This document shows positions 52,453 to 63,337 of a stretch of 64,000 bases of DNA, piece by piece. The DNA lies in IMG/VR virus record IMGVR_UViG_3300009151_000071, positions 1 to 64,000 of that record; one strand, written 5' to 3'. The notes under the pieces were generated by a model. The model was not told where the DNA came from, did no database searches, and saw nothing but the letters and a program-made list of their open reading frames with translations. This DNA is from a virus. The first letter of the stretch is position 1. The number at the start of each line of letters is the position of its first letter. The position numbers were made by a program, and so were the translations under genes.

Positions 52453-52482
52453 TTTCAGCTCCTTTTTAGTTTCTATACAAGT

Positions 52483-52511
52483 ATTATACATTTAATGGAT
52501 TTTTGGGTCAA
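52483..52511 (-). promoter_or_regulatory. Family sigma70-like promoter (TTGACC-17-TATAAT)
   Basis: One of the near-identical promoters; followed by the shared leader ACTTGTATAGAAACTAAAAAGGAGC. Confidence 0.82.
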
Positions 52512-54236: not shown

Positions 54237-54453
54237 GGTTGTTTCTGTTACGAGGTATTTCCTACCCTAAGTGGCTGTTAGGCCGCTAATGCGAACTGTG
54301 CGTCGTTTGCGTTTACGTTTTTTGCTTCTACGACCAGGCTCCGTCTTTCTATGCTATGGGCATAGCGACTAAAGTTACCCTAATCCTAACGGGTTTCACA
54401 TTCCCGTGCTGTCTGCTTGACTACTTACCGCCCTGTCGAAACTATGCAGGCCC
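54237..54453 (-). ncRNA. ssrA: tmRNA coding piece (5' half, with tag reading frame)
   Basis: On the minus strand the piece starts GGGCCTG (54453-54447) followed by the conserved TAGTTTCGACAGGG block of tmRNA 5' ends. The tag frame runs from GCA (54325) to TAA (54278) and gives AKNVNANDAQFALAA, with the canonical ALAA degron end. Stem-loop material for pseudoknots lies on both sides. The 5' GGGCCTG pairs with CAGGTCC of the acceptor piece at 54826-54890, including the G3-U pair that marks alanyl-tRNA identity. Thus the gene is circularly permuted. Confidence 0.88.
54278..54325 (-). other. tmRNA tag-peptide reading frame
   Basis: 15 codons plus stop, AKNVNANDAQFALAA. Longer than the usual 8-11-residue proteobacterial tags but ending in the same LAA signal recognised by ClpXP/ClpAP. 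Confidence 0.85.
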
Positions 54454-54466
54454 ATCATAAAGAATC

Positions 54467-54802
54467 TTACTTATTGCGACTTGCCCAAAATGCCTCACTA
54501 TCGGGTGATAGCACATCGCTTGGAACTACGGTATTACCTAGTTTTTTTGCATAATTGTACATCATACTAGCAATACCTTGCCTACGAAATTTAGGATCGA
54601 CCAAAACTTTATCAGCTGTTAAGTTTTTCCCAGTGATGCTAAAGATAGCATAACCAACCTTTTCACCTGATTTCGTATACGCTTCAATATTTAGAATTCC
54701 GGGTGTAGTAACAAAGGATCTAAAATCAAAGGCATCAGTTTTAACCCAATCGTTAAATCTAGTACCTCTTTTCAATCCAGGCATTATTTCGTTAATTTGC
54801 AT
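54467..54802 (-). CDS. GNAT acetyltransferase lying between the tmRNA halves
   Basis: 111 aa. Short GNAT fold: IEAYTKSGEKVGYAIFSI, then the acetyl-CoA loop VDPKFRRQGIASMMYNYAKK (R/Q-x-x-G-x-A). Substrate unknown. It sits on the same strand inside the intervening segment of the permuted tmRNA gene, where only a short spacer is normal, and has its own late box 4 bp before the ATG. Confidence 0.82.
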   Translation of the reverse strand: MQINEIMPGLKRGTRFNDWVKTDAFDFRSFVTTPGILNIEAYTKSGEKVGYAIFSITGKNLTADKVLVDPKFRRQGIASMMYNYAKKLGNTVVPSDVLSPDSEAFWASRNK

Positions 54803-54806
54803 TTAG

Positions 54807-54814
54807 TATTTATT
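54807..54814 (-). promoter_or_regulatory. T4-like late promoter box AATAAATA, 4 bp before ATG
   Basis: Between the encoded CCA of the tmRNA acceptor piece and the GNAT start. Confidence 0.5.
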
Positions 54815-54825
54815 CAAATTCCTTA

Positions 54826-54890
54826 TGGTGGACCTGGGGGGATTCGCACCCCCGTCCAAGACGCCTTTCGGCTTGCTTCATACAACAATA
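54826..54890 (-). ncRNA. ssrA: tmRNA acceptor piece (3' half)
   Basis: Minus strand 3' end: T-arm GGGGG-TGCGAAT-CCCCC (54853-54837), acceptor strand CAGGTCC (54836-54830), discriminator A and an encoded CCA (54828-54826). A CAAG/CTTG stem with a GCCGAAAGGC hairpin precedes it. A sigma70-like promoter ends a few bases upstream, so this half is transcribed first, as expected for a permuted tmRNA gene. Confidence 0.88.
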
Positions 54891-54896
54891 ACTTAT

Positions 54897-54925
54897 ATTA
54901 TATGTTATTTATTAGTTAAAGTCAA
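54897..54925 (-). promoter_or_regulatory. Sigma70-like promoter of the tmRNA (TTGACT-17-TATAAT)
   Basis: Minus strand, directly before the acceptor piece; overlaps the 3' end of the 2OG oxygenase gene. Confidence 0.8.
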
Positions 54926-55516
54926 TTGATACACAAAACAAATCCGGGGATCTGTATTCTTATGCTCGCTTACTCCATGACAGACTTCTGGGCCGTGCAT
55001 AATCAGGTCTCCCGAACTAGGAGTAATATATTCCTTGTGTATTTCGTCTATGTCCGATGGCAATTTTCCAGTACAGTCTTGATCAACAATAATCAAACTG
55101 CTACCGCCCGGTGGGTTATTAACATAAAACACAGCAACTAAATCGGGAGTTGTTAATTGATTGTTTGTAGCTACATGATTGTGACATCGCCCTTGGCTAT
55201 TAATTTCCATTCGGTTGGTCCAGGACCTATCAACGTCAACTGACTTGACTTTCAACAATTCAGTTGCTTGTTGCTTAATCCAGGTTAAAAGATCTTGTGC
55301 GTCGGGAAGGTTAGCTGGACCTAGATAAGGAATAACTTCGCTAGTTTCGCCTTCGCCGTAGTGGCTGTCCCAAACTTGCCCACGATCTCGATTTTTAACT
55401 TCAGACAGTTCCATTATGTTACGGATACCTTGATCTAATCCAGCATTGTTGTACCAGTGCTGGTGAGGGCAATGTACTACTGCAATATCATGGCCAAATA
55501 GCTTATACACTTGCAT
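54905..55516 (-). CDS. 2OG-Fe(II) oxygenase-like protein
   Basis: 203 aa from ATG 55516, which overlaps the halogenase end. Double-stranded beta-helix features: CHNHVATNNQLTTPDLVAVF (putative first iron His), YVNNPPGGSSLIIVD, GDLIMHGPEVCHGVSEHK (second His) and an Arg in DPRICFVYQL. Last gene of the modification operon. Prolyl/aspartyl-hydroxylase-like chemistry on a protein side chain is plausible. Confidence 0.75.
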   Translation of the reverse strand: MQVYKLFGHDIAVVHCPHQHWYNNAGLDQGIRNIMELSEVKNRDRGQVWDSHYGEGETSEVIPYLGPANLPDAQDLLTWIKQQATELLKVKSVDVDRSWTNRMEINSQGRCHNHVATNNQLTTPDLVAVFYVNNPPGGSSLIIVDQDCTGKLPSDIDEIHKEYITPSSGDLIMHGPEVCHGVSEHKNTDPRICFVYQLTLTNK

Positions 55517-56660
55517 GACCGATTCCTTGTGCAACTGAGTTCCAATTATGATCGTTAAATGTTTTTAGAACACCCGGTGCTGGCCTTACAAACTCTTGGG
55601 CATGATCAAACGCTTGCCAAAATGGTGAATCGTTACGTCCTGACAAGTAGTGAAAATGCAAGAAGTCGGCAATGTCTCTGTTCATTGTGTTGACTGCTTG
55701 ATTGTATTGTCTACGAGCATCTGCGTCGTTGTTTAGTATTCCTGATATTTTTGTAGCCAACAAGTTAAGACTGGCAGTTTGTACCCAAATGCTAGTTTCT
55801 TCTAACGGTTCGCTAAATCCCGAGCTCAGGCCAATGGCAACACAATTTGCTACCCAGGTTTGATCATAACAGCCAGCATCAAAACTAAATTGCCTAGGGC
55901 TCACAATCTCGTGACCGTAATACTCTTCTAACTCTTGATGTATTTGTTCATCGGTAGCACAACTGCTGTCAAAAACATAGCCGCATCCATATCGTCCCTG
56001 TACAGGAATGCGCCACATCCATCCATGGCGCATAGCTACAGCTTCGGTATAGGTTGGCAAATCCACTCCGGCATTGGGTAAAAAGAACGGCATAGCTCGA
56101 TCGACTGGCAGTATAGATTGATACGATGTCCATTTAGTAGCATAATGCTTGCCAATGATTAAGCGAGCAAAACCCGAGCAATCAAACACAAAATCTACTG
56201 GGACTGTAGTTTGATCTTTAAGCACTAAACCAGTAATAGTGTCACTGCCTGTTACAGCAACAACTTCGCTGTCAATTAATTTAATACCACGTGCTAAGCC
56301 TTGTGTTTGTAAAAACTTGGCCAGCAGGTTAGCGTCAAAATGCAACGCTCGATCGCCCATGCCCGAATCTGCTAAAAAATTATGATCATAATAATCATTT
56401 ACTCCACGCCAGTTTACAAAACGTATTCCGTTCTTAACTGTACCACGGGCCTGTGCAATAATGTCTAAAGGATTAATACCAATCTGATTTAAAAAGTTTA
56501 CAAATGGTGGAGTGGTTCCTTCGCCGGCACCTAATATGCCAATTTCACTGCTGGCTATTACAGTAACTTCGCTATAGGGAAATTGTGACTTGACAAATAG
56601 TGCGGTGAGCCACCCAGCGGTGCCGCCACCAACTACTGCGTATTCAAGATTGGTCTTCAT
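55503..56660 (-). CDS. Flavin-dependent (tryptophan) halogenase-like protein
   Basis: 385 aa. FAD-binding GGGTAGW (11-17), GEGTTP (47-52), catalytic Lys in TVKNGIRF (K76), the halogenase signature WMWRIP (214-219), and GFSEPLEETSIW with the second catalytic Glu. The family uses FADH2, O2 and halide to make hypohalous acid that reacts through the Lys. A cyanophage relative, VirX1, is known to iodinate many substrates in vitro. PrnA is larger (~530 aa); this compact size is VirX1-like. It sits between two 2OG oxygenases. Confidence 0.88.
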   Translation of the reverse strand: MKTNLEYAVVGGGTAGWLTALFVKSQFPYSEVTVIASSEIGILGAGEGTTPPFVNFLNQIGINPLDIIAQARGTVKNGIRFVNWRGVNDYYDHNFLADSGMGDRALHFDANLLAKFLQTQGLARGIKLIDSEVVAVTGSDTITGLVLKDQTTVPVDFVFDCSGFARLIIGKHYATKWTSYQSILPVDRAMPFFLPNAGVDLPTYTEAVAMRHGWMWRIPVQGRYGCGYVFDSSCATDEQIHQELEEYYGHEIVSPRQFSFDAGCYDQTWVANCVAIGLSSGFSEPLEETSIWVQTASLNLLATKISGILNNDADARRQYNQAVNTMNRDIADFLHFHYLSGRNDSPFWQAFDHAQEFVRPAPGVLKTFNDHNWNSVAQGIGHASV

Positions 56661-57249
56661 GTATGATTCTAATATCCATTACTACAGATATTCTATTTTC
56701 TGTGCTTAGATTTGTTTCAACGCTGTGGAATAGATAGTTAGGAAACATAAGTAAGGTTCCAACTTTTGGCTCAACACGGTAATAGATTCTGCCGGTGCGC
56801 CCTTCGCTATCGGCTGTTACTAAGGGTTCTTGCCATGCTAGATTAACTGAACCTCGGGCATCAAGTAGCAGTAAGTCTCCAGAGTTAGGCGGGCAGTCAA
56901 CATAGTAAATTCCTACCATGTCTAGGTCACTGTGGTGATGTGGGGTATCGCACCGACCTGGTGCTATAACATTATGTCTGGTACGTAAGTCTAAATTGTA
57001 CTCGGGCCATCGACGTTCTTGTGCAATTGACTCTATAGCATCTACTGTATACTGTCTTAATGCGCTTGTACCGTAACCGGCAAAGTCCAGGAAACTATAG
57101 TGCTTGGTATGTACAGGATTAATCTTCTGTTGTTCGTTGACATGCTGACTAAAGTTTAATCCATCGAGCCTAACTAACTCTGCTAGTTCCGGCTGGCTCG
57201 CTGATAAATCAAAGGTCCAGAGTGGACTACTGAATAACTCTATTTTCAT
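56644..57249 (-). CDS. 2OG-Fe(II) oxygenase-like protein
   Basis: 201 aa. Iron ligands readable as HHHSDLDMVGIYYVD (HxD-type) and FHSVETNLSTENRISVVMDI (distal His and 2OG-binding Arg). Matches the small phage hydroxylase group (TIGR02466-like). Overlaps the halogenase gene by 17 bp and the upstream unknown by 23 bp, so co-translation is likely. Confidence 0.82.
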   Translation of the reverse strand: MKIELFSSPLWTFDLSASQPELAELVRLDGLNFSQHVNEQQKINPVHTKHYSFLDFAGYGTSALRQYTVDAIESIAQERRWPEYNLDLRTRHNVIAPGRCDTPHHHSDLDMVGIYYVDCPPNSGDLLLLDARGSVNLAWQEPLVTADSEGRTGRIYYRVEPKVGTLLMFPNYLFHSVETNLSTENRISVVMDIRIIHEDQS

Positions 57250-57877
57250 TAATCTTATCTACCACAAGTTGACAGATACGATCTTGTTTTTCTGGATCGC
57301 TATAAATGCTTTTAGGCAATGTAACTTGAACTACATCGTCTACATAATTTCCAATGCCCGGGAATCTAGTAGCAGTTAAATCTTTAATGCCGCAATCAAT
57401 TACGATAGCATCGTTACCAGCTTCGGCAATAATAGCAGTATCTACAACCAAGAAGGCCTGTGCAGTAGTTACCTGATCTAAGGTGCGTAAACGGTTAAGT
57501 ACATCAGCCAATGCTGGCTCTGGATCAGCAATAGGTACAATACTATGACCGCGCAGAACAATGCTGTCTACTGTATCCGGTTTTAAAAAGAATACGTGTG
57601 TTTGTGGAACAATAGCAAAACGGTCGGCTACTTCACGGAATTCGCTAACCGGGGGATGTCCTGCAACAGACCACACTTCGTAAGGAACGATAATTGTAAT
57701 ATCTCTAGGCGTTCCTGTACTGTCTTTAAATGTAAATGTAAATAGTGTTGGCTTCACCGAAAATGTATATGCTGGCGTAATTTGTGCCATCATAACGTCT
57801 GTTGGCTCTTGAGCCTTTACATCTACAAATGCCTCAATGCTTTTGCAAGCATCAATGAATTCTTGTAATTGTGTCAT
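57227..57877 (-). CDS. Unknown protein of the modification operon
   Basis: 216 aa, mostly beta with a helical C-terminus; no Cys-rich or enzyme motif, two His and one Cys (IVIDCGIKDL). It lies between the radical SAM enzyme and an oxygenase. It could be a partner, chaperone or recognition protein for substrate binding, but no such domain is seen. Confidence 0.65.
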   Translation of the reverse strand: MTQLQEFIDACKSIEAFVDVKAQEPTDVMMAQITPAYTFSVKPTLFTFTFKDSTGTPRDITIIVPYEVWSVAGHPPVSEFREVADRFAIVPQTHVFFLKPDTVDSIVLRGHSIVPIADPEPALADVLNRLRTLDQVTTAQAFLVVDTAIIAEAGNDAIVIDCGIKDLTATRFPGIGNYVDDVVQVTLPKSIYSDPEKQDRICQLVVDKINENRVIQ

Positions 57878-57878
57878 A

Positions 57879-59327
57879 TTATTCCTCTACTCGAGATTGG
57901 CCGTATACTTCAATATCGTCAATCACTGCAATCTTTTCTGTTATCACCTTAATAGGTATAATCTTTTTCTTAGACTTTTCTTGGTGGGTTAGTACAGTAC
58001 CCCAAATGTCTTCACGCTCTGGTGGCAAGTTACCACCTTTGATCATGACAGGAATATATCCTGTCATTTTTTCAATTGCTAGTGCAAACAACGGAACATT
58101 ATCACTGTAGGCATTGTTACAAGTGATGTCCCAATACTTGCCATCTAGATACATACAACTGCCCTTGCATAAGTGTAACACAGGGCAGTCTTGACAATTG
58201 GGTCGATTTAACCAATGTGTGACTGATTTCAATCTAACATTTTCGTAATCGTCTAGATTACCTCCAAGGTGGCTTTCGCCATTTTTACTTGTTTCTTTAA
58301 CGCTTACGTTCTGGCAAGTAACAATATTACCAGTCAAGTCCACAGCAATGGTATGATCGTTGTCCATTCCACACTTCTGTCCTACGTACTTTGATTCTTT
58401 GTGCTTTAATACATCTCGAATAAAGCCATCAATCTTGCCAGTGACACCTGCAAAGTTAATACGGCCGCCAGTGGAGTACATGTCATTGAATGATGTTTTG
58501 CGATATTCAAAATGTTCTTCTAGTGTGTCTAGGCTGTTGTTAGAACCATCTTCGTCGTAGGCGTCAACCATGGCACCTTCGCCAATGATAACAGTTGGGT
58601 CGCCGGTAAATTCTACAAACCAATCGTATACATCTTTACGGCTGGTGTTACGTCGGTTCATCATGGTATTAAAACTAAAACGACCTTGCGGCTTCATCAC
58701 ATTGTAGAATTCCATAAGAATCTTTTTCTTAGCTGGATCCGTAAAAGGATCTGGGCCACGTACTGTTTGATTTGGTCCATCGTGGCTGATGCTTACATTA
58801 AATCCCATGTAGTATAACCAGGATCCTATTTCTCGTGTTAGCAAACTGCCGTTGGTAATAACACTCATCTGTGGACGCTTTTTCCACGAACTGAATTTTT
58901 CTTGCAATGCTTCGGCTAGAGGTTTAAATGTTTTCCAGTACACAAATGGTTCACCGCCCCAGAATTCAATCTTCAGACCTTTTTCTTCACTGAACTCAAG
59001 CACTTCTAACTTGGTCATAAAAGCATCAATGTCTTTTTTACTGGTCTCTGCTGGACGCTCAACAAATTTTTGACTACAGTAATCGCAGGAGTAATTGCAA
59101 CTTAGGCCAAGTTGTATTTTAAGGATACCAATCTTTGTGCTTTTACGTAGAGGGTCGTCTTTGGAAAAAGCACGAACTTCCGGATAGTAATAACCATCTG
59201 GTTCTTTTTCTTCTTTGGGGTATTCATACACATTATTGTCAGACGTAGATAGCGTATTTGTTACGTTGTCGTAATAGAATACTTTCTTATCCGTAGCACT
59301 ACGCTCGGCATGAATTTCAAATTGCAT
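57879..59327 (-). CDS. Radical SAM enzyme with SPASM domain
   Basis: 482 aa from the ATG at 59327 (AAGG before it; the 59354 TTG frame is longer). Radical SAM cluster motif CNYSCDYC (C77, C81, C84 by this numbering) preceded by ILKIQLGLS. KIEFWGGEPFVYW is the GGE motif. The C-terminal SPASM-like part has about eight Cys (KCGMDNDHT, VTCQNVS, RPNCQDCPVLHLCKGSCMY). SPASM enzymes include sulfatase maturases and RiPP peptide modifiers that act on Cys/Ser or form thioethers. Gene order next to an Asn-Cys-rich protein makes that protein the best candidate substrate. Confidence 0.9.
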   Translation of the reverse strand: MQFEIHAERSATDKKVFYYDNVTNTLSTSDNNVYEYPKEEKEPDGYYYPEVRAFSKDDPLRKSTKIGILKIQLGLSCNYSCDYCSQKFVERPAETSKKDIDAFMTKLEVLEFSEEKGLKIEFWGGEPFVYWKTFKPLAEALQEKFSSWKKRPQMSVITNGSLLTREIGSWLYYMGFNVSISHDGPNQTVRGPDPFTDPAKKKILMEFYNVMKPQGRFSFNTMMNRRNTSRKDVYDWFVEFTGDPTVIIGEGAMVDAYDEDGSNNSLDTLEEHFEYRKTSFNDMYSTGGRINFAGVTGKIDGFIRDVLKHKESKYVGQKCGMDNDHTIAVDLTGNIVTCQNVSVKETSKNGESHLGGNLDDYENVRLKSVTHWLNRPNCQDCPVLHLCKGSCMYLDGKYWDITCNNAYSDNVPLFALAIEKMTGYIPVMIKGGNLPPEREDIWGTVLTHQEKSKKKIIPIKVITEKIAVIDDIEVYGQSRVEE

Positions 59328-59334
59328 AGTAACC

Positions 59335-59997
59335 TTATTTTTTGATTTGTTCAACTTTGTTGTCTAATTGCTTTAGTGCTTCTAACAATAAAGGAATCAA
59401 ACGTTCGTATCTAACTCTTAGAATATCTGTATCGGGCAAATTAGTACCCAATGCGACAGGGAAATGCTGTTTAACTTTATTTGCGCTAACACCAACATCA
59501 CGTTGGGTATCTAATCCTAGGCTTGCGGCCAATTCGTTACCGGTATAATAAAAACCATCTAATTGACGTACAATGTCAAGTGCGTTTTCAATTACAGTTT
59601 CTCGGTTCTTTAGGGTGTCATCGGACCAGAAGCAATCGCAGTTACAATCGCAGTTACAATTATGGCTAGCCGATGCGGAATATGTACAGTTATAAGTACA
59701 GTTACAATTACAGTTAGCCTGCAACCACGATTGAGCGTCGCAGTTAGCACAGTTTATAGCGCCAGTGATAAAACAGTTGTCACCACCAATATTTCCACAA
59801 TTACAATTATTAGTACAATTACCGTTATTACAGTTACCAGAGTTATTGTTTTGATAGTATGCACGACCGTGCAACGAATTCATATCTGAAACGTTGTCTT
59901 TGGTATTGGCTTTAACCCAACTTAGAGAAGGGCTTGATTGTCCCGTTTCTGTTGAAACGTCGCTGAGTGCAATTTGTCCGGATGCTGGTAGTGTCAT
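59335..59997 (-). CDS. Asn-Cys-rich fibre protein with S74 chaperone end
   Basis: 220 aa from the ATG at 59997, 5 bp after a late box. Three parts. N-terminal ~48 residues (MTLPASGQIALSDVSTETGQ) are like phage fibre anchors. Residues 50-122 hold 16 Cys, each preceded by Asn (14 times) or Asp (twice), in repeats such as NCNCNC and NCDCNCDC. From ~124 comes the peptidase-S74/endosialidase intramolecular chaperone (WSDDTLKNRETVIENALDIV, C-terminal IPLLLEALKQLDNKVEQIKK). S74 domains trimerise and cleave off in fibres. The Asn-Cys region looks like a modification target for the enzymes next door. Confidence 0.85.
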   Translation of the reverse strand: MTLPASGQIALSDVSTETGQSSPSLSWVKANTKDNVSDMNSLHGRAYYQNNNSGNCNNGNCTNNCNCGNIGGDNCFITGAINCANCDAQSWLQANCNCNCTYNCTYSASASHNCNCDCNCDCFWSDDTLKNRETVIENALDIVRQLDGFYYTGNELAASLGLDTQRDVGVSANKVKQHFPVALGTNLPDTDILRVRYERLIPLLLEALKQLDNKVEQIKK

Positions 59998-60002
59998 ATA
60001 AC

Positions 60003-60010
60003 TATTTATC
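60003..60010 (-). promoter_or_regulatory. T4-like late promoter box GATAAATA, 5 bp before ATG
   Basis: Heads the fibre-modification operon; GTTAT and then ATG follow. Confidence 0.65.
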
Positions 60011-60298: not shown

Positions 60299-60306
60299 TA
60301 TTTATA
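60299..60306 (-). promoter_or_regulatory. Consensus T4-like late promoter box TATAAATA, 7 bp before ATG
   Basis: Followed by CTA as in T4 late promoters. Overlaps by two bases the terminal repeat arm of the large RNA. Confidence 0.65.
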
Positions 60307-61075
60307 TAGGAAAGTATTTGAGTACCAATTTATGCGTCCGGGGCTTCCGTGCAATAGCGTATGGTTAGTTATATCAGGACCTGTTCCACGCCAGTTAGGC
60401 CCGTATAGTGTACACGTCTGCACACTTACCTATGTTTCCATCTCAAATACTTACCTATACAAACAAAATGCTCTGCGAACCCCGGTGGTAATTATAGTGT
60501 ATCAGAAATTTCGTCAAGTTGCCCCAACTAGTCTATTCATCACTTACACCCTCCACCCACTCCCCGACGGGTTCCGCTCTCGTGTTGCCAACGGCCTTTC
60601 GGTTCAAAGACTACCACCCACGGGGTACGACCACCGTTTCTCCTTCATGCGGGTCACACTAGCCCAGCGTTACCCGGGCGGGTCCTTTACAACAAATTCG
60701 TCATGGATGGTTTTGGGAAGTGGCACCATGATTCACTTGCGGGTTTTATAGAGTCTTTATTAAGCGAACCCTTTCGGGACTCTAAAAGAACGCACTTGTC
60801 CTTATCCGCTATTAGGAAAAAATTAAAGGAACTATGTTCAAACCTCAACACCACATATCGGTTCTACAGTCATTACTTCCTAGCTATCCGTCGCCTTCCT
60901 GGAGTTTGATAGTCCTTATCCTGGGGCTAGATGGTGTCTTGCCTTACTTTAGAACCCTCCTGCTTCATGGGTTACAGGGACCGTTTATTCATCCCTGCTG
61001 TTCACCCCTAACGGACTAGGTAACCTTCAACTCTTTCCTAATAGCGGGGGCTTGTTACAGCCCACCGCTTATGCT
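60305..61075 (-). ncRNA. Large structured RNA (~770 nt), GOLLD/ROOL-like candidate
   Basis: No credible gene in ~780 bp between the stops/starts at 60291 and 61078, and clearly higher GC than its surroundings. Many hairpins: 61043-61069 (GCGG-GGGCT arms), 60975-60997, 60750-60783 (AGAGTC/GACTCT with inner CCC-GAAA-GGG), a second CCGAAAGG hairpin near 60590-60605, and a long-range 18-bp pairing with one mismatch between 60305-60322 and 60442-60459. It follows the 61078-61413 gene without a terminator, so it is probably cotranscribed from the promoter at 61474. Size and phage location resemble the giant ornate RNAs GOLLD or ROOL, but the class was not verified. Confidence 0.65.
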
Positions 61076-61077
61076 AA

Positions 61078-61413
61078 TTACTCAGCTACAGCGTCTTTAG
61101 CTACAGCACGAGCCTTGATAGCTTCCAACGAAGGCTTGGTAGCCTTAACTTTACCTGCTTTAGCAGATACAGTACCATTGTACTTGGCATCAGCCGTATC
61201 AATGGCATCGCGATACGATGGGTTAGCATACAAATCGGTACCCTTCAAAAAGGTAACCAAATCTGGCTTAGACATTGCTTTAGGCAACTCCACAAGATTG
61301 ATATCACTATCAGTCTTGGCCAAGATTTTAACACGGGTCATATCACCTGCGAAACGCACTTTGTATTGACCTTTAGTCTTGCTAACACCACCAACTTTGA
61401 ACAATTTGTCCAT
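61078..61413 (-). CDS. Hypothetical protein upstream of the large RNA
   Basis: 111 aa from ATG 61413 (GGAG well placed). Basic and Ala/Lys-rich, beta-rich N-terminus (KTKGQYKVRFAGDMTRVKIL), helical Ala-rich end. No motif. Its message has a 7-bp hairpin at its very 5' end. Confidence 0.65.
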   Translation of the reverse strand: MDKLFKVGGVSKTKGQYKVRFAGDMTRVKILAKTDSDINLVELPKAMSKPDLVTFLKGTDLYANPSYRDAIDTADAKYNGTVSAKAGKVKATKPSLEAIKARAVAKDAVAE

Positions 61414-62763: not shown

Positions 62764-62793
62764 TTTTGATTCCTTTTTAGTTTCTATACAAGT

Positions 62794-62822
62794 ATTATAC
62801 ATTTAATGGATTTATGTGTCAA
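62794..62822 (-). promoter_or_regulatory. Family sigma70-like promoter (TTGACA-17-TATAAT)
   Basis: Near-identical to the copy at 52483. Its -35 overlaps the stop codon of the 38-aa gene at 62819-62935. Confidence 0.82.
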
Positions 62823-62975: not shown

Positions 62976-63302
62976 TTAGTGTGTATTTAGAGCTGGGTTA
63001 AATTCACGGATCAACTCACGCTCACGGGCATGAGCCGGCTTGCGTCCACGTACAATTTCCAACAGGCCATACACATGGTTTTCTGAGCCATATTTACGGA
63101 TACTGTGGCATAAATCCCACACTTTGTTTTCAGTTAATGCACGGCGAACGTGCTTCTGAATACGAATCTTTAACGCTCTACGGACTTGGTTACCGCAAAC
63201 GGTAATACCAATGTATTGCTCGCCGGTTACTGTATTTGTAATACAGTAGACAGCATGGTTGCTATCTTGACGGCGTTTTCTTGACTGCTTTTTAAGTTCC
63301 AT
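62976..63302 (-). CDS. GIY-YIG nuclease-like protein
   Basis: 108 aa from the ATG at 63302, which is six bases after the -10 (leaderless). VYCITNTVTGEQYIGITV is the GIY-YIG core, followed by RIQKHVRRAL. C-terminal Glu/Asn: RELIREFNPALNTH. A small endonuclease, possibly host-targeted or of the homing type. Basic N-terminus (LKKQSRKRRQ). Confidence 0.72.
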   Translation of the reverse strand: MELKKQSRKRRQDSNHAVYCITNTVTGEQYIGITVCGNQVRRALKIRIQKHVRRALTENKVWDLCHSIRKYGSENHVYGLLEIVRGRKPAHARERELIREFNPALNTH

Positions 63303-63308
63303 ACAAGT

Positions 63309-63337
63309 ATTATACATTTAATGGATTTTAGGGTCTA
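63309..63337 (-). promoter_or_regulatory. Family sigma70-like promoter (TAGACC-17-TATAAT)
   Basis: Same spacer and -10 as the other copies, with one mismatch in the -35. Confidence 0.75.

What the first reader, a model, noticed from the sequence alone, without database searches (positions are those of the whole stretch)
54905..59997. Possible virion-protein modification operon: Asn-Cys fibre + radical SAM/SPASM + halogenase + two hydroxylases
Six genes overlap or abut in one direction behind a late promoter. The first encodes an S74-type fibre in which all 16 Cys follow Asn or Asp. The next encodes a radical SAM/SPASM enzyme, the type that modifies Cys-containing peptides. An unknown protein, a 2OG-Fe(II) oxygenase, a flavin halogenase and a second oxygenase follow. 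Together this is the enzyme set of a RiPP-like pathway, but with a phage fibre as the probable substrate. Thioether bridges, Asn/Asp hydroxylation or Trp halogenation could harden the fibre or change its binding.
Basis: partly seen in the sequence, partly recalled or inferred. Interest (0 to 1): 0.93.

Follow-up and report, generated by a model that had tools for sequence, protein, structure and literature searches.

The report
Phage tail-tip protein with tailoring enzymes
Some phages add a chain of alternating asparagine and cysteine to the end of a tail protein and carry, in the same operon or tail-gene region, a radical enzyme that very probably remodels those cysteines, so the tip that touches the host may be chemically tailored in the way bacterial peptide natural products are.

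Summary
The window carries a minus-strand operon: a 220-aa S74 fibre in which all 16 Cys follow Asn/Asp, then a three-cluster radical SAM/SPASM enzyme, an unknown protein, a 2OG oxygenase, a flavin halogenase and a second oxygenase. The NC-rich protein and the radical SAM gene are almost inseparable. Of 45 viral loci found by the enzyme, 43 carry an NC-rich ORF. Of 79 found by the NC protein, 77 carry the enzyme; one exception ends at the contig edge, the other has no NC region. An unbiased scan for DNA encoding NC[N/D]CNC[N/D]C in 2.9 million viral contigs gave 61 ORFs with the tag near the C-terminus. All 55 that could be judged have a radical SAM gene on the same contig. Ten chance matches outside real ORFs have none. 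The pairing spans siphophages, T4-like phages, Burkholderiales prophages and cultured Achromobacter phages JWF and 2-1. All 22 halogenase loci have a Trp at the end of the tag; all 72 judgeable loci without halogenase lack it. I propose RiPP-like, probably thioether, tailoring of tail-fibre tips. The chemistry and its biological purpose are not shown.

The parts
59335..59997 (-). NC-tagged short tail fibre (220 aa): N-terminal MTLPxSGQI domain (1-50), Asn-Cys region (55-122), S74 C-terminal module (125-220)
   Evidence: PF13884 22.5 bits; PHROG 5668 tail fibre 1e-14; 16 of 16 Cys after N/D; homologues
59618..59635 (-). End of the NC tag and start of the S74 module (CFW|SDD...): Trp124 lies just before the Ser-Asp where S74 modules are known to cut themselves
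   Evidence: sequence; the cleavage position is from knowledge of endosialidase S74 domains, not tested
57879..59327 (-). Radical SAM/SPASM enzyme, 482 aa, CX3CX2C plus two auxiliary-cluster motifs
   Evidence: best named model PapB ranthipeptide maturase 3e-23, below its cut-off; PDB 8vpo 2.6e-12, CteB 5wgg 5e-7
57227..57877 (-). Accessory protein of unknown function (216 aa), apparently two copies of an alpha/beta unit; a similar-sized gene follows the radical SAM gene in the halogenase loci examined
   Evidence: no family match; family alignment; AF2 pLDDT 83 with no PDB fold match
56644..57249 (-). 2OG-Fe(II) oxygenase 1 (PF13759)
   Evidence: 61.3 bits vs cut-off 27; invariant H104, H106, H175 and near-invariant R186 in 43 homologues
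55503..56660 (-). Short flavin-dependent halogenase (385 aa)
   Evidence: PF04820 1.8e-91; K76, W214/W216 and E287 invariant in 10 homologues; lacks the segment facing PDB residues ~97-153 and about 110-150 C-terminal residues of free-Trp halogenases
54905..55516 (-). 2OG-Fe(II) oxygenase 2 (PF13759, borderline)
   Evidence: 27.0 bits vs cut-off 27; PHROG 81 3.7e-11
60003..60009 (-). ATAAATA, T4-late-promoter-like motif upstream of the fibre
   Evidence: position-enriched upstream of genes in this window

Best explanation
The operon makes and chemically tailors the tip of a tail fibre. Step 1: a virion protein is made whose C-terminal part is an alternating (Asn/Asp/Ala)-Cys tag; in this phage and some relatives the tag is followed by a fibre C-terminal module (S74, Hint or a KIICTKL module), elsewhere it is the end of the protein. 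Step 2: the adjacent radical SAM/SPASM enzyme acts on the Cys residues of the tag, most likely installing intramolecular thioether bridges as PapB and QhpD do. Step 3: 2OG oxygenases hydroxylate residues of the tag or fibre, and in lineages with the short flavin halogenase the Trp at the end of the tag is halogenated (or otherwise oxidised). Step 4: where a self-cleaving S74 or Hint module is present it is cut off, leaving the modified tag as the exposed fibre end. Supported by comparison here: pairing of tag and enzyme, position of the tag, location next to host-recognition genes in the loci examined, match of terminal Trp and halogenase. Inferred: every reaction, the cleavage and the benefit (a covalently stiffened or differently binding tip).
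For: Linkage both ways: 43/45 radical SAM loci have an NC-rich ORF; 77/79 NC loci have the enzyme, exceptions L121 (contig end) and L123 (no NC region); 158/191 loci with the enzyme vs 1/59 without. Unbiased DNA-motif scan: 61 ORFs with the tag within 30 aa of the C-terminus; 49 have the enzyme in the fetched locus, 5 more on the same contig, 1 at the contig edge, and 6 are cut by the contig end within about 1.1 kb; 0 of 10 chance matches outside real ORFs have it. Breadth: prophages and isolates at 38-48% enzyme identity; further subfamilies at 25-30% in gut and other phages. Tail context: neighbours match central tail fibre J, T4 long-tail-fibre distal subunit and baseplate hub families; published pelagimyophages carry radical SAM cassettes in their host-recognition cluster (PMC7029224). 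Chemistry: full SPASM motifs in 80/80 distinct enzymes; PapB and QhpD models rank high; PapB links Cys to Asp/Glu at spacings 0-6 (PMC9413430); QhpD plus the halogenase-like QhpG modify Cys and Trp of one structural subunit (PMC7876137); SrpI brominates a C-terminal Trp of a RiPP precursor (PMC10858898). Halogenase and tag-end Trp agree in 94/94 rows, 22 with both.
Against: No virion mass spectrometry, mutant or in vitro reaction. No RRE or leader was identified. The halogenase-Trp match rests on only 2 changes on the tree, so it cannot reach significance as independent events. The tag is poorly predicted by AF2 (pLDDT under 50), so its structure is unknown. L013 has an intact enzyme but no NC ORF on its 44 kb contig fragment. 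Bacteriovorax enzymes at 30% identity have no NC partner within the fetched region. Ala often replaces Asn before Cys (13%), so Asn need not be the acceptor. In some motif-scan contigs the enzyme is on the same contig but its distance from the tag was not measured.
Confidence: 0.8

Rival explanations
1. The tag is modified by the radical SAM enzyme, but not by thioether bridging: for example Cys to formylglycine as anaerobic sulfatase maturases do, or another Cys/Asn change.
For: Anaerobic sulfatase maturase models and structures also match; JWF's enzyme is annotated that way. Ala tolerance before Cys argues against a required Asn acceptor.
Against: Strict Cys alternation and up to about 30 Cys per protein look more like multiple cross-links; PapB and QhpD score better than sulfatase maturase for the window enzyme; the sulfatase consensus C/S-x-P-x-R is not seen in the tags.
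Confidence: 0.25
2. The Cys tag is a metal-binding or disulfide-linked tip, and the radical SAM enzyme modifies something else nearby.
For: Dense Cys-x-Cys patterns resemble metal-binding proteins; phage tail tips can bind iron (general knowledge).
Against: The enzyme follows the tag across several unrelated protein scaffolds (short fibres, long fibres, fibres with collagen-like repeats, Hint-fused fibres), so the shared element is the tag.
Confidence: 0.1
3. The NC protein is a true RiPP precursor whose product is released during infection, for example as a signal or toxin, rather than being part of the virion.
For: The short NC proteins (about 130 aa) look like a leader plus a Cys-rich core.
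Against: The tag also ends 300-630 aa tail fibres next to J and T4-type fibre genes; S74, Hint and KIICTKL modules are fibre C-terminal parts; no protease or exporter is a constant neighbour.
Confidence: 0.08
4. The oxygenases and halogenase are unrelated auxiliary genes (DNA repair, 2-oxoglutarate metabolism, free Trp chemistry) that merely share the operon.
For: PF13759 oxygenases and halogenases are common in cyanophages and have been read as metabolic genes (PMC3037559); halogenase relatives without the radical SAM gene exist.
Against: Halogenase and tag-end Trp agree in 94/94 rows; the halogenase lacks much of the C-terminal part of free-Trp halogenases; a PF13759-like oxygenase sits directly upstream of the radical SAM gene in several prophages.
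Confidence: 0.25

Closest known systems
Quinohemoprotein amine dehydrogenase gamma-subunit maturation (QhpC/QhpD/QhpG)
   Same: A Cys-rich structural protein cross-linked by a SPASM radical SAM enzyme and then modified on a Trp by a halogenase-like flavoprotein (PMC7876137)
   Different: Substrate is a phage tail protein, not an enzyme subunit; both enzymes score far below the QhpD and QhpG cut-offs (66 vs 453; 38 vs 240 bits); the phage flavoprotein keeps the halogenase Lys and Glu; 2OG oxygenases are added
Ranthipeptide maturation by PapB/PapA
   Same: Three-cluster SPASM enzyme next to a Cys-rich substrate; PapB is the best named model
   Different: 82.6 vs 340 bits cut-off; Asn rather than Asp/Glu dominates; the substrate is a tail protein and no RRE was identified
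SrpI/SrpE RiPP brominase
   Same: Flavin halogenase acting on the C-terminal Trp of a ribosomal precursor (PMC10858898)
   Different: No radical SAM partner in the passages read; the phage enzyme's substrate would be a fibre
S74 (endosialidase-type) self-cleaving fibre chaperone
   Same: The window fibre ends in this module
   Different: It follows an NC tag; relatives swap it for Hint, KIICTKL or nothing
Radical SAM cassettes in the host-recognition cluster of pelagimyophages
   Same: Radical SAM genes reported beside phage tail-fibre genes (PMC7029224)
   Different: No substrate, tag or function was proposed in the passages read

Membership tests
Radical SAM/SPASM peptide maturase | CX3CX2C core motif | tested here: met
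   80/80 distinct full-length enzymes
Radical SAM/SPASM peptide maturase | SPASM motifs CX9-15GX4C and CX2CX5CX3C | tested here: met
   80/80; TIGR04085 35.7 vs 27 bits
PapB ranthipeptide maturase (NF047865) | Score over the equivalog cut-off | tested here: not met
   82.6 vs 340 bits
QhpD (TIGR03906) | Score over the equivalog cut-off | tested here: not met
   66.1 vs 453 bits
RiPP pathway | Adjacent genetically linked ribosomal substrate | tested here: met
RiPP pathway | RRE or recognisable leader | tested here: inconclusive
   no RRE match among the Pfam/NCBIfam hits listed; the MTLPxSGQI domain could play that part
RiPP pathway | Demonstrated modified product | not testable with these tools
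   needs mass spectrometry
Flavin-dependent Trp halogenase (PF04820) | Family score; catalytic Lys, GWxWxIP, Glu | tested here: met
   307.8 vs 21 bits; K76, W214/W216 and E287 invariant in 10 homologues
Free-tryptophan halogenase (PrnA/RebH type) | Full C-terminal region that binds free Trp | tested here: not met
   385 aa; local matches end near chain residue 400-440 of 497-554; the binding role of that region is from general knowledge
QhpG (NF049967) | Score over the equivalog cut-off | tested here: not met
   38.3 vs 240 bits
Peptidase_S74 (PF13884) | Score over the gathering cut-off | tested here: met
   22.5 vs 22 bits, marginal; tail-fibre PHROGs at 1e-14
2OG-FeII_Oxy_5 (PF13759) | Score over the gathering cut-off | tested here: met
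   oxygenase 1 61.3, oxygenase 2 27.0 vs 27

The most novel reading that the evidence does not exclude
A widespread, previously undescribed layer of virion maturation: unrelated phages use a modular C-terminal Asn-Cys tag, partnered with several radical SAM subfamilies and optional oxygenases and a halogenase, to build chemically cross-linked and sometimes halogenated tail-fibre tips that act in host recognition or entry.
Probability: 0.6. Interest if true: 0.95.

Novelty: new variant of a known kind. Interest (0 to 1): 0.88.

Why it matters
If true, phages build receptor-contacting tips with natural-product chemistry, which would extend RiPP-type radical SAM and halogenase chemistry from small peptides to virion proteins. 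It gives a substrate to phage-borne radical SAM enzymes and to some phage 2OG oxygenases and halogenases now filed as auxiliary metabolic genes. It is directly testable in the cultured phages JWF and 2-1. The tag also defines a simple sequence signature for genome mining.

Tried and rejected
AF2 of the NC fibre gave no usable model of the tag (pLDDT 62 overall, under 50 in much of the tag), so no structural claim is made. AF2 of the unknown protein was good (83) but had no PDB fold match. A phylogenetic test of halogenase vs Trp had only 1-2 independent contrasts, too few for significance. A whole-genome search with the short pattern AAYTGYRAYTGY was too permissive to be useful. A fibre tblastn in the phage collection found only S74 modules of ordinary fibres in the rows listed. 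Paper searches for phage fibres modified by radical SAM enzymes found no such report, but subscription journals and preprints are not held. A planned tag-pattern scan of genome contigs was not possible (cap).

Full report
WHAT IS THERE. The window is part of a 64,781-base virus record. On the minus strand six genes run head to tail with 1-23 nt between or overlapping: an S74-type short fibre (59997-59335), a radical SAM/SPASM enzyme (59327-57879), an unknown protein (57877-57227), a 2OG-Fe(II) oxygenase (57249-56644), a flavin halogenase (56660-55503) and a second oxygenase (55516-54905). All 16 Cys of the fibre follow Asn (14) or Asp (2); none of 200,000 shuffles of the 68-residue stretch reproduced this. 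ATAAATA, a T4-late-like motif, lies just upstream of the fibre start, and this motif is position-enriched upstream of genes in this window (14 of 24 vs 1.8 expected).

LINKAGE, TWO WAYS. A viral-contig scan with the radical SAM protein gave 45 loci; 43 have exactly one NC-rich ORF, next to the enzyme or one gene away. L044 is cut by its contig; L013 has none on its 44 kb fragment. The reverse scan with a relative's NC protein gave 79 loci; 77 carry the enzyme. Of the two exceptions, L121 ends 159 nt after the NC gene, and L123 shares only the C-terminal KIICTKL module and has neither NC region nor enzyme. Over the loci fetched up, runs of xCxCxC occur in 158 of 191 loci with the enzyme and in 1 of 59 without it, the one being L121.

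UNBIASED TEST. In 69 loci the match lies in an ORF of at least 60 aa, and in 61 the tag lies within 30 residues of the C-terminus. Of those 61, 49 have a radical SAM gene in the fetched locus, five more have one on the same contig (L261, L295, L299, L310, L336), and L289 shows the start of one at the contig edge. The other six (L266, L304, L306, L312, L337, L339) end within about 1.1 kb after the tagged gene. In ten loci the match falls in no real ORF and none of them has the enzyme. L268 and L340 carry the motif inside or in a low-complexity ORF without the enzyme.

BREADTH. The pairing holds at 38-48% enzyme identity in prophage-like loci of Limnohabitans, Burkholderia paludis, Phaeospirillum and Bradyrhizobium, and at 55-58% in Polynucleobacter and Paraburkholderia, and in cultured Achromobacter phages JWF and 2-1. 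JWF's fibre reads ...NCNCDCNCNCS-CFPAGT..., the tag running straight into a Hint domain. Further radical SAM subfamilies at 25-30% identity go with other tagged proteins. Scaffolds differ widely: 130-aa short fibres, 300-650-aa fibres, one with collagen-like repeats, tiny paralogues (L156, L251) and S74, Hint or KIICTKL fusions. What they share is the tag. In the loci annotated, neighbours are host-recognition genes: central tail fibre J (L130, L133, L249), a T4-type long-tail-fibre distal subunit (L114) and a baseplate hub (L156). A published survey independently notes radical SAM cassettes in the host-recognition cluster of pelagimyophages (PMC7029224).

THE ENZYMES. All 80 distinct enzymes tested keep the radical SAM motif and both SPASM motifs. 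The best named models are PapB (3e-23), geopeptide maturase and QhpD, all far below their cut-offs, so it is none of these. PapB links Cys to Asp/Glu at spacings 0-6 (PMC9413430). The halogenase keeps Lys76, GWxWxIP and Glu287 but lacks a stretch facing PDB residues about 97-153 and much of the C-terminal part of free-Trp halogenases, which suggests a larger substrate. It also resembles QhpG, which dihydroxylates a Trp in QhpC after QhpD has cross-linked it (PMC7876137). The oxygenases keep an invariant H-x-H...H pattern and a near-invariant Arg; related oxygenases sit directly upstream of the radical SAM gene in several prophages. The unknown protein has similar-sized, weakly similar counterparts right after the radical SAM gene in the halogenase loci examined; its predicted fold matches nothing in the PDB.

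HALOGENASE AND TRYPTOPHAN. Loci with the halogenase have tags ending in Trp (CACACW, CNCW, CACTW, CACLW, or CFW just before the S74 module); judgeable loci without it do not. Agreement is 94 of 94 tree rows, 22 with both. L112, an S74 locus with the same oxygenases, shows no halogenase and has CLF in place of CFW, but its contig ends 3.3 kb after the enzyme, so it is not counted. L005 has the Trp but its contig ends before the place of the halogenase, a prediction that could be checked. The trait changes only twice on the enzyme tree, so this is strong in count but weak as independent evolution. The RiPP brominase SrpI acts on a C-terminal Trp (PMC10858898).

INTERPRETATION. Best supported is that the tagged tail protein is the substrate of the radical SAM enzyme, with oxygenases and, in some lineages, the halogenase as further tailoring steps. 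Thioether bridging is the likeliest chemistry because of the SPASM type and the Cys density, but Asn dominates before Cys (71%) where PapB and QhpD use Asp/Glu, and Ala is tolerated (13%). S74 and Hint modules are known to cleave themselves (general knowledge), so the mature fibre would end in the tag. Purpose is inference: a covalently stiffened tip or altered receptor contact.

LIMITS. No experiment was possible. The literature library lacks preprints and most subscription journals, so priority cannot be claimed. Many contigs are fragments and near-copies exist. Some motif-scan enzymes were only placed on the same contig.

Noticed in passing
window 54278-54887 (-): A permuted tmRNA (RF04321, 95.6 bits) whose two parts are separated by an intervening stretch that holds a 111-aa GNAT acetyltransferase ORF (54467-54802).
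   Followed up: partly
window 60300-61080: About 720 nt without long ORFs, at 48% GC against 40% for the window, conserved at the DNA level in L004, L062 and the L013 contig (70-91%); no credible Rfam match and no unusual folding energy (z -0.87).
   Followed up: partly
L272 3054-10408 and 11426-11662: Four radical SAM genes in one phage contig near a 79-aa protein ending HTHIFFDDYSTACNCNCNCNCTRGIL.
   Followed up: no
L269 2386-2754: A phage protein with many C-Q-x-C-Q repeats that also ends in NCNCDCNCNCSDDS, on a contig with two radical SAM genes; a close relative in L287.
   Followed up: no
window 52461-52488 and 62772-62799 (-): The same 28-nt stretch starts two different ORFs (MYNTCIETKKE...); a third ORF at 62976-63317 begins MYNTCMELKKQ. 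Possibly a shared leader or expression signal.
   Followed up: partly
L155 4361-5428: A second, different radical SAM gene directly upstream of the tag-partner radical SAM gene in a Phaeospirillum contig.
   Followed up: no
L158-L161, L163: Bacteriovorax-type radical SAM relatives (about 30% identity) have no NC partner in the fetched region; their substrate is unknown.
   Followed up: no
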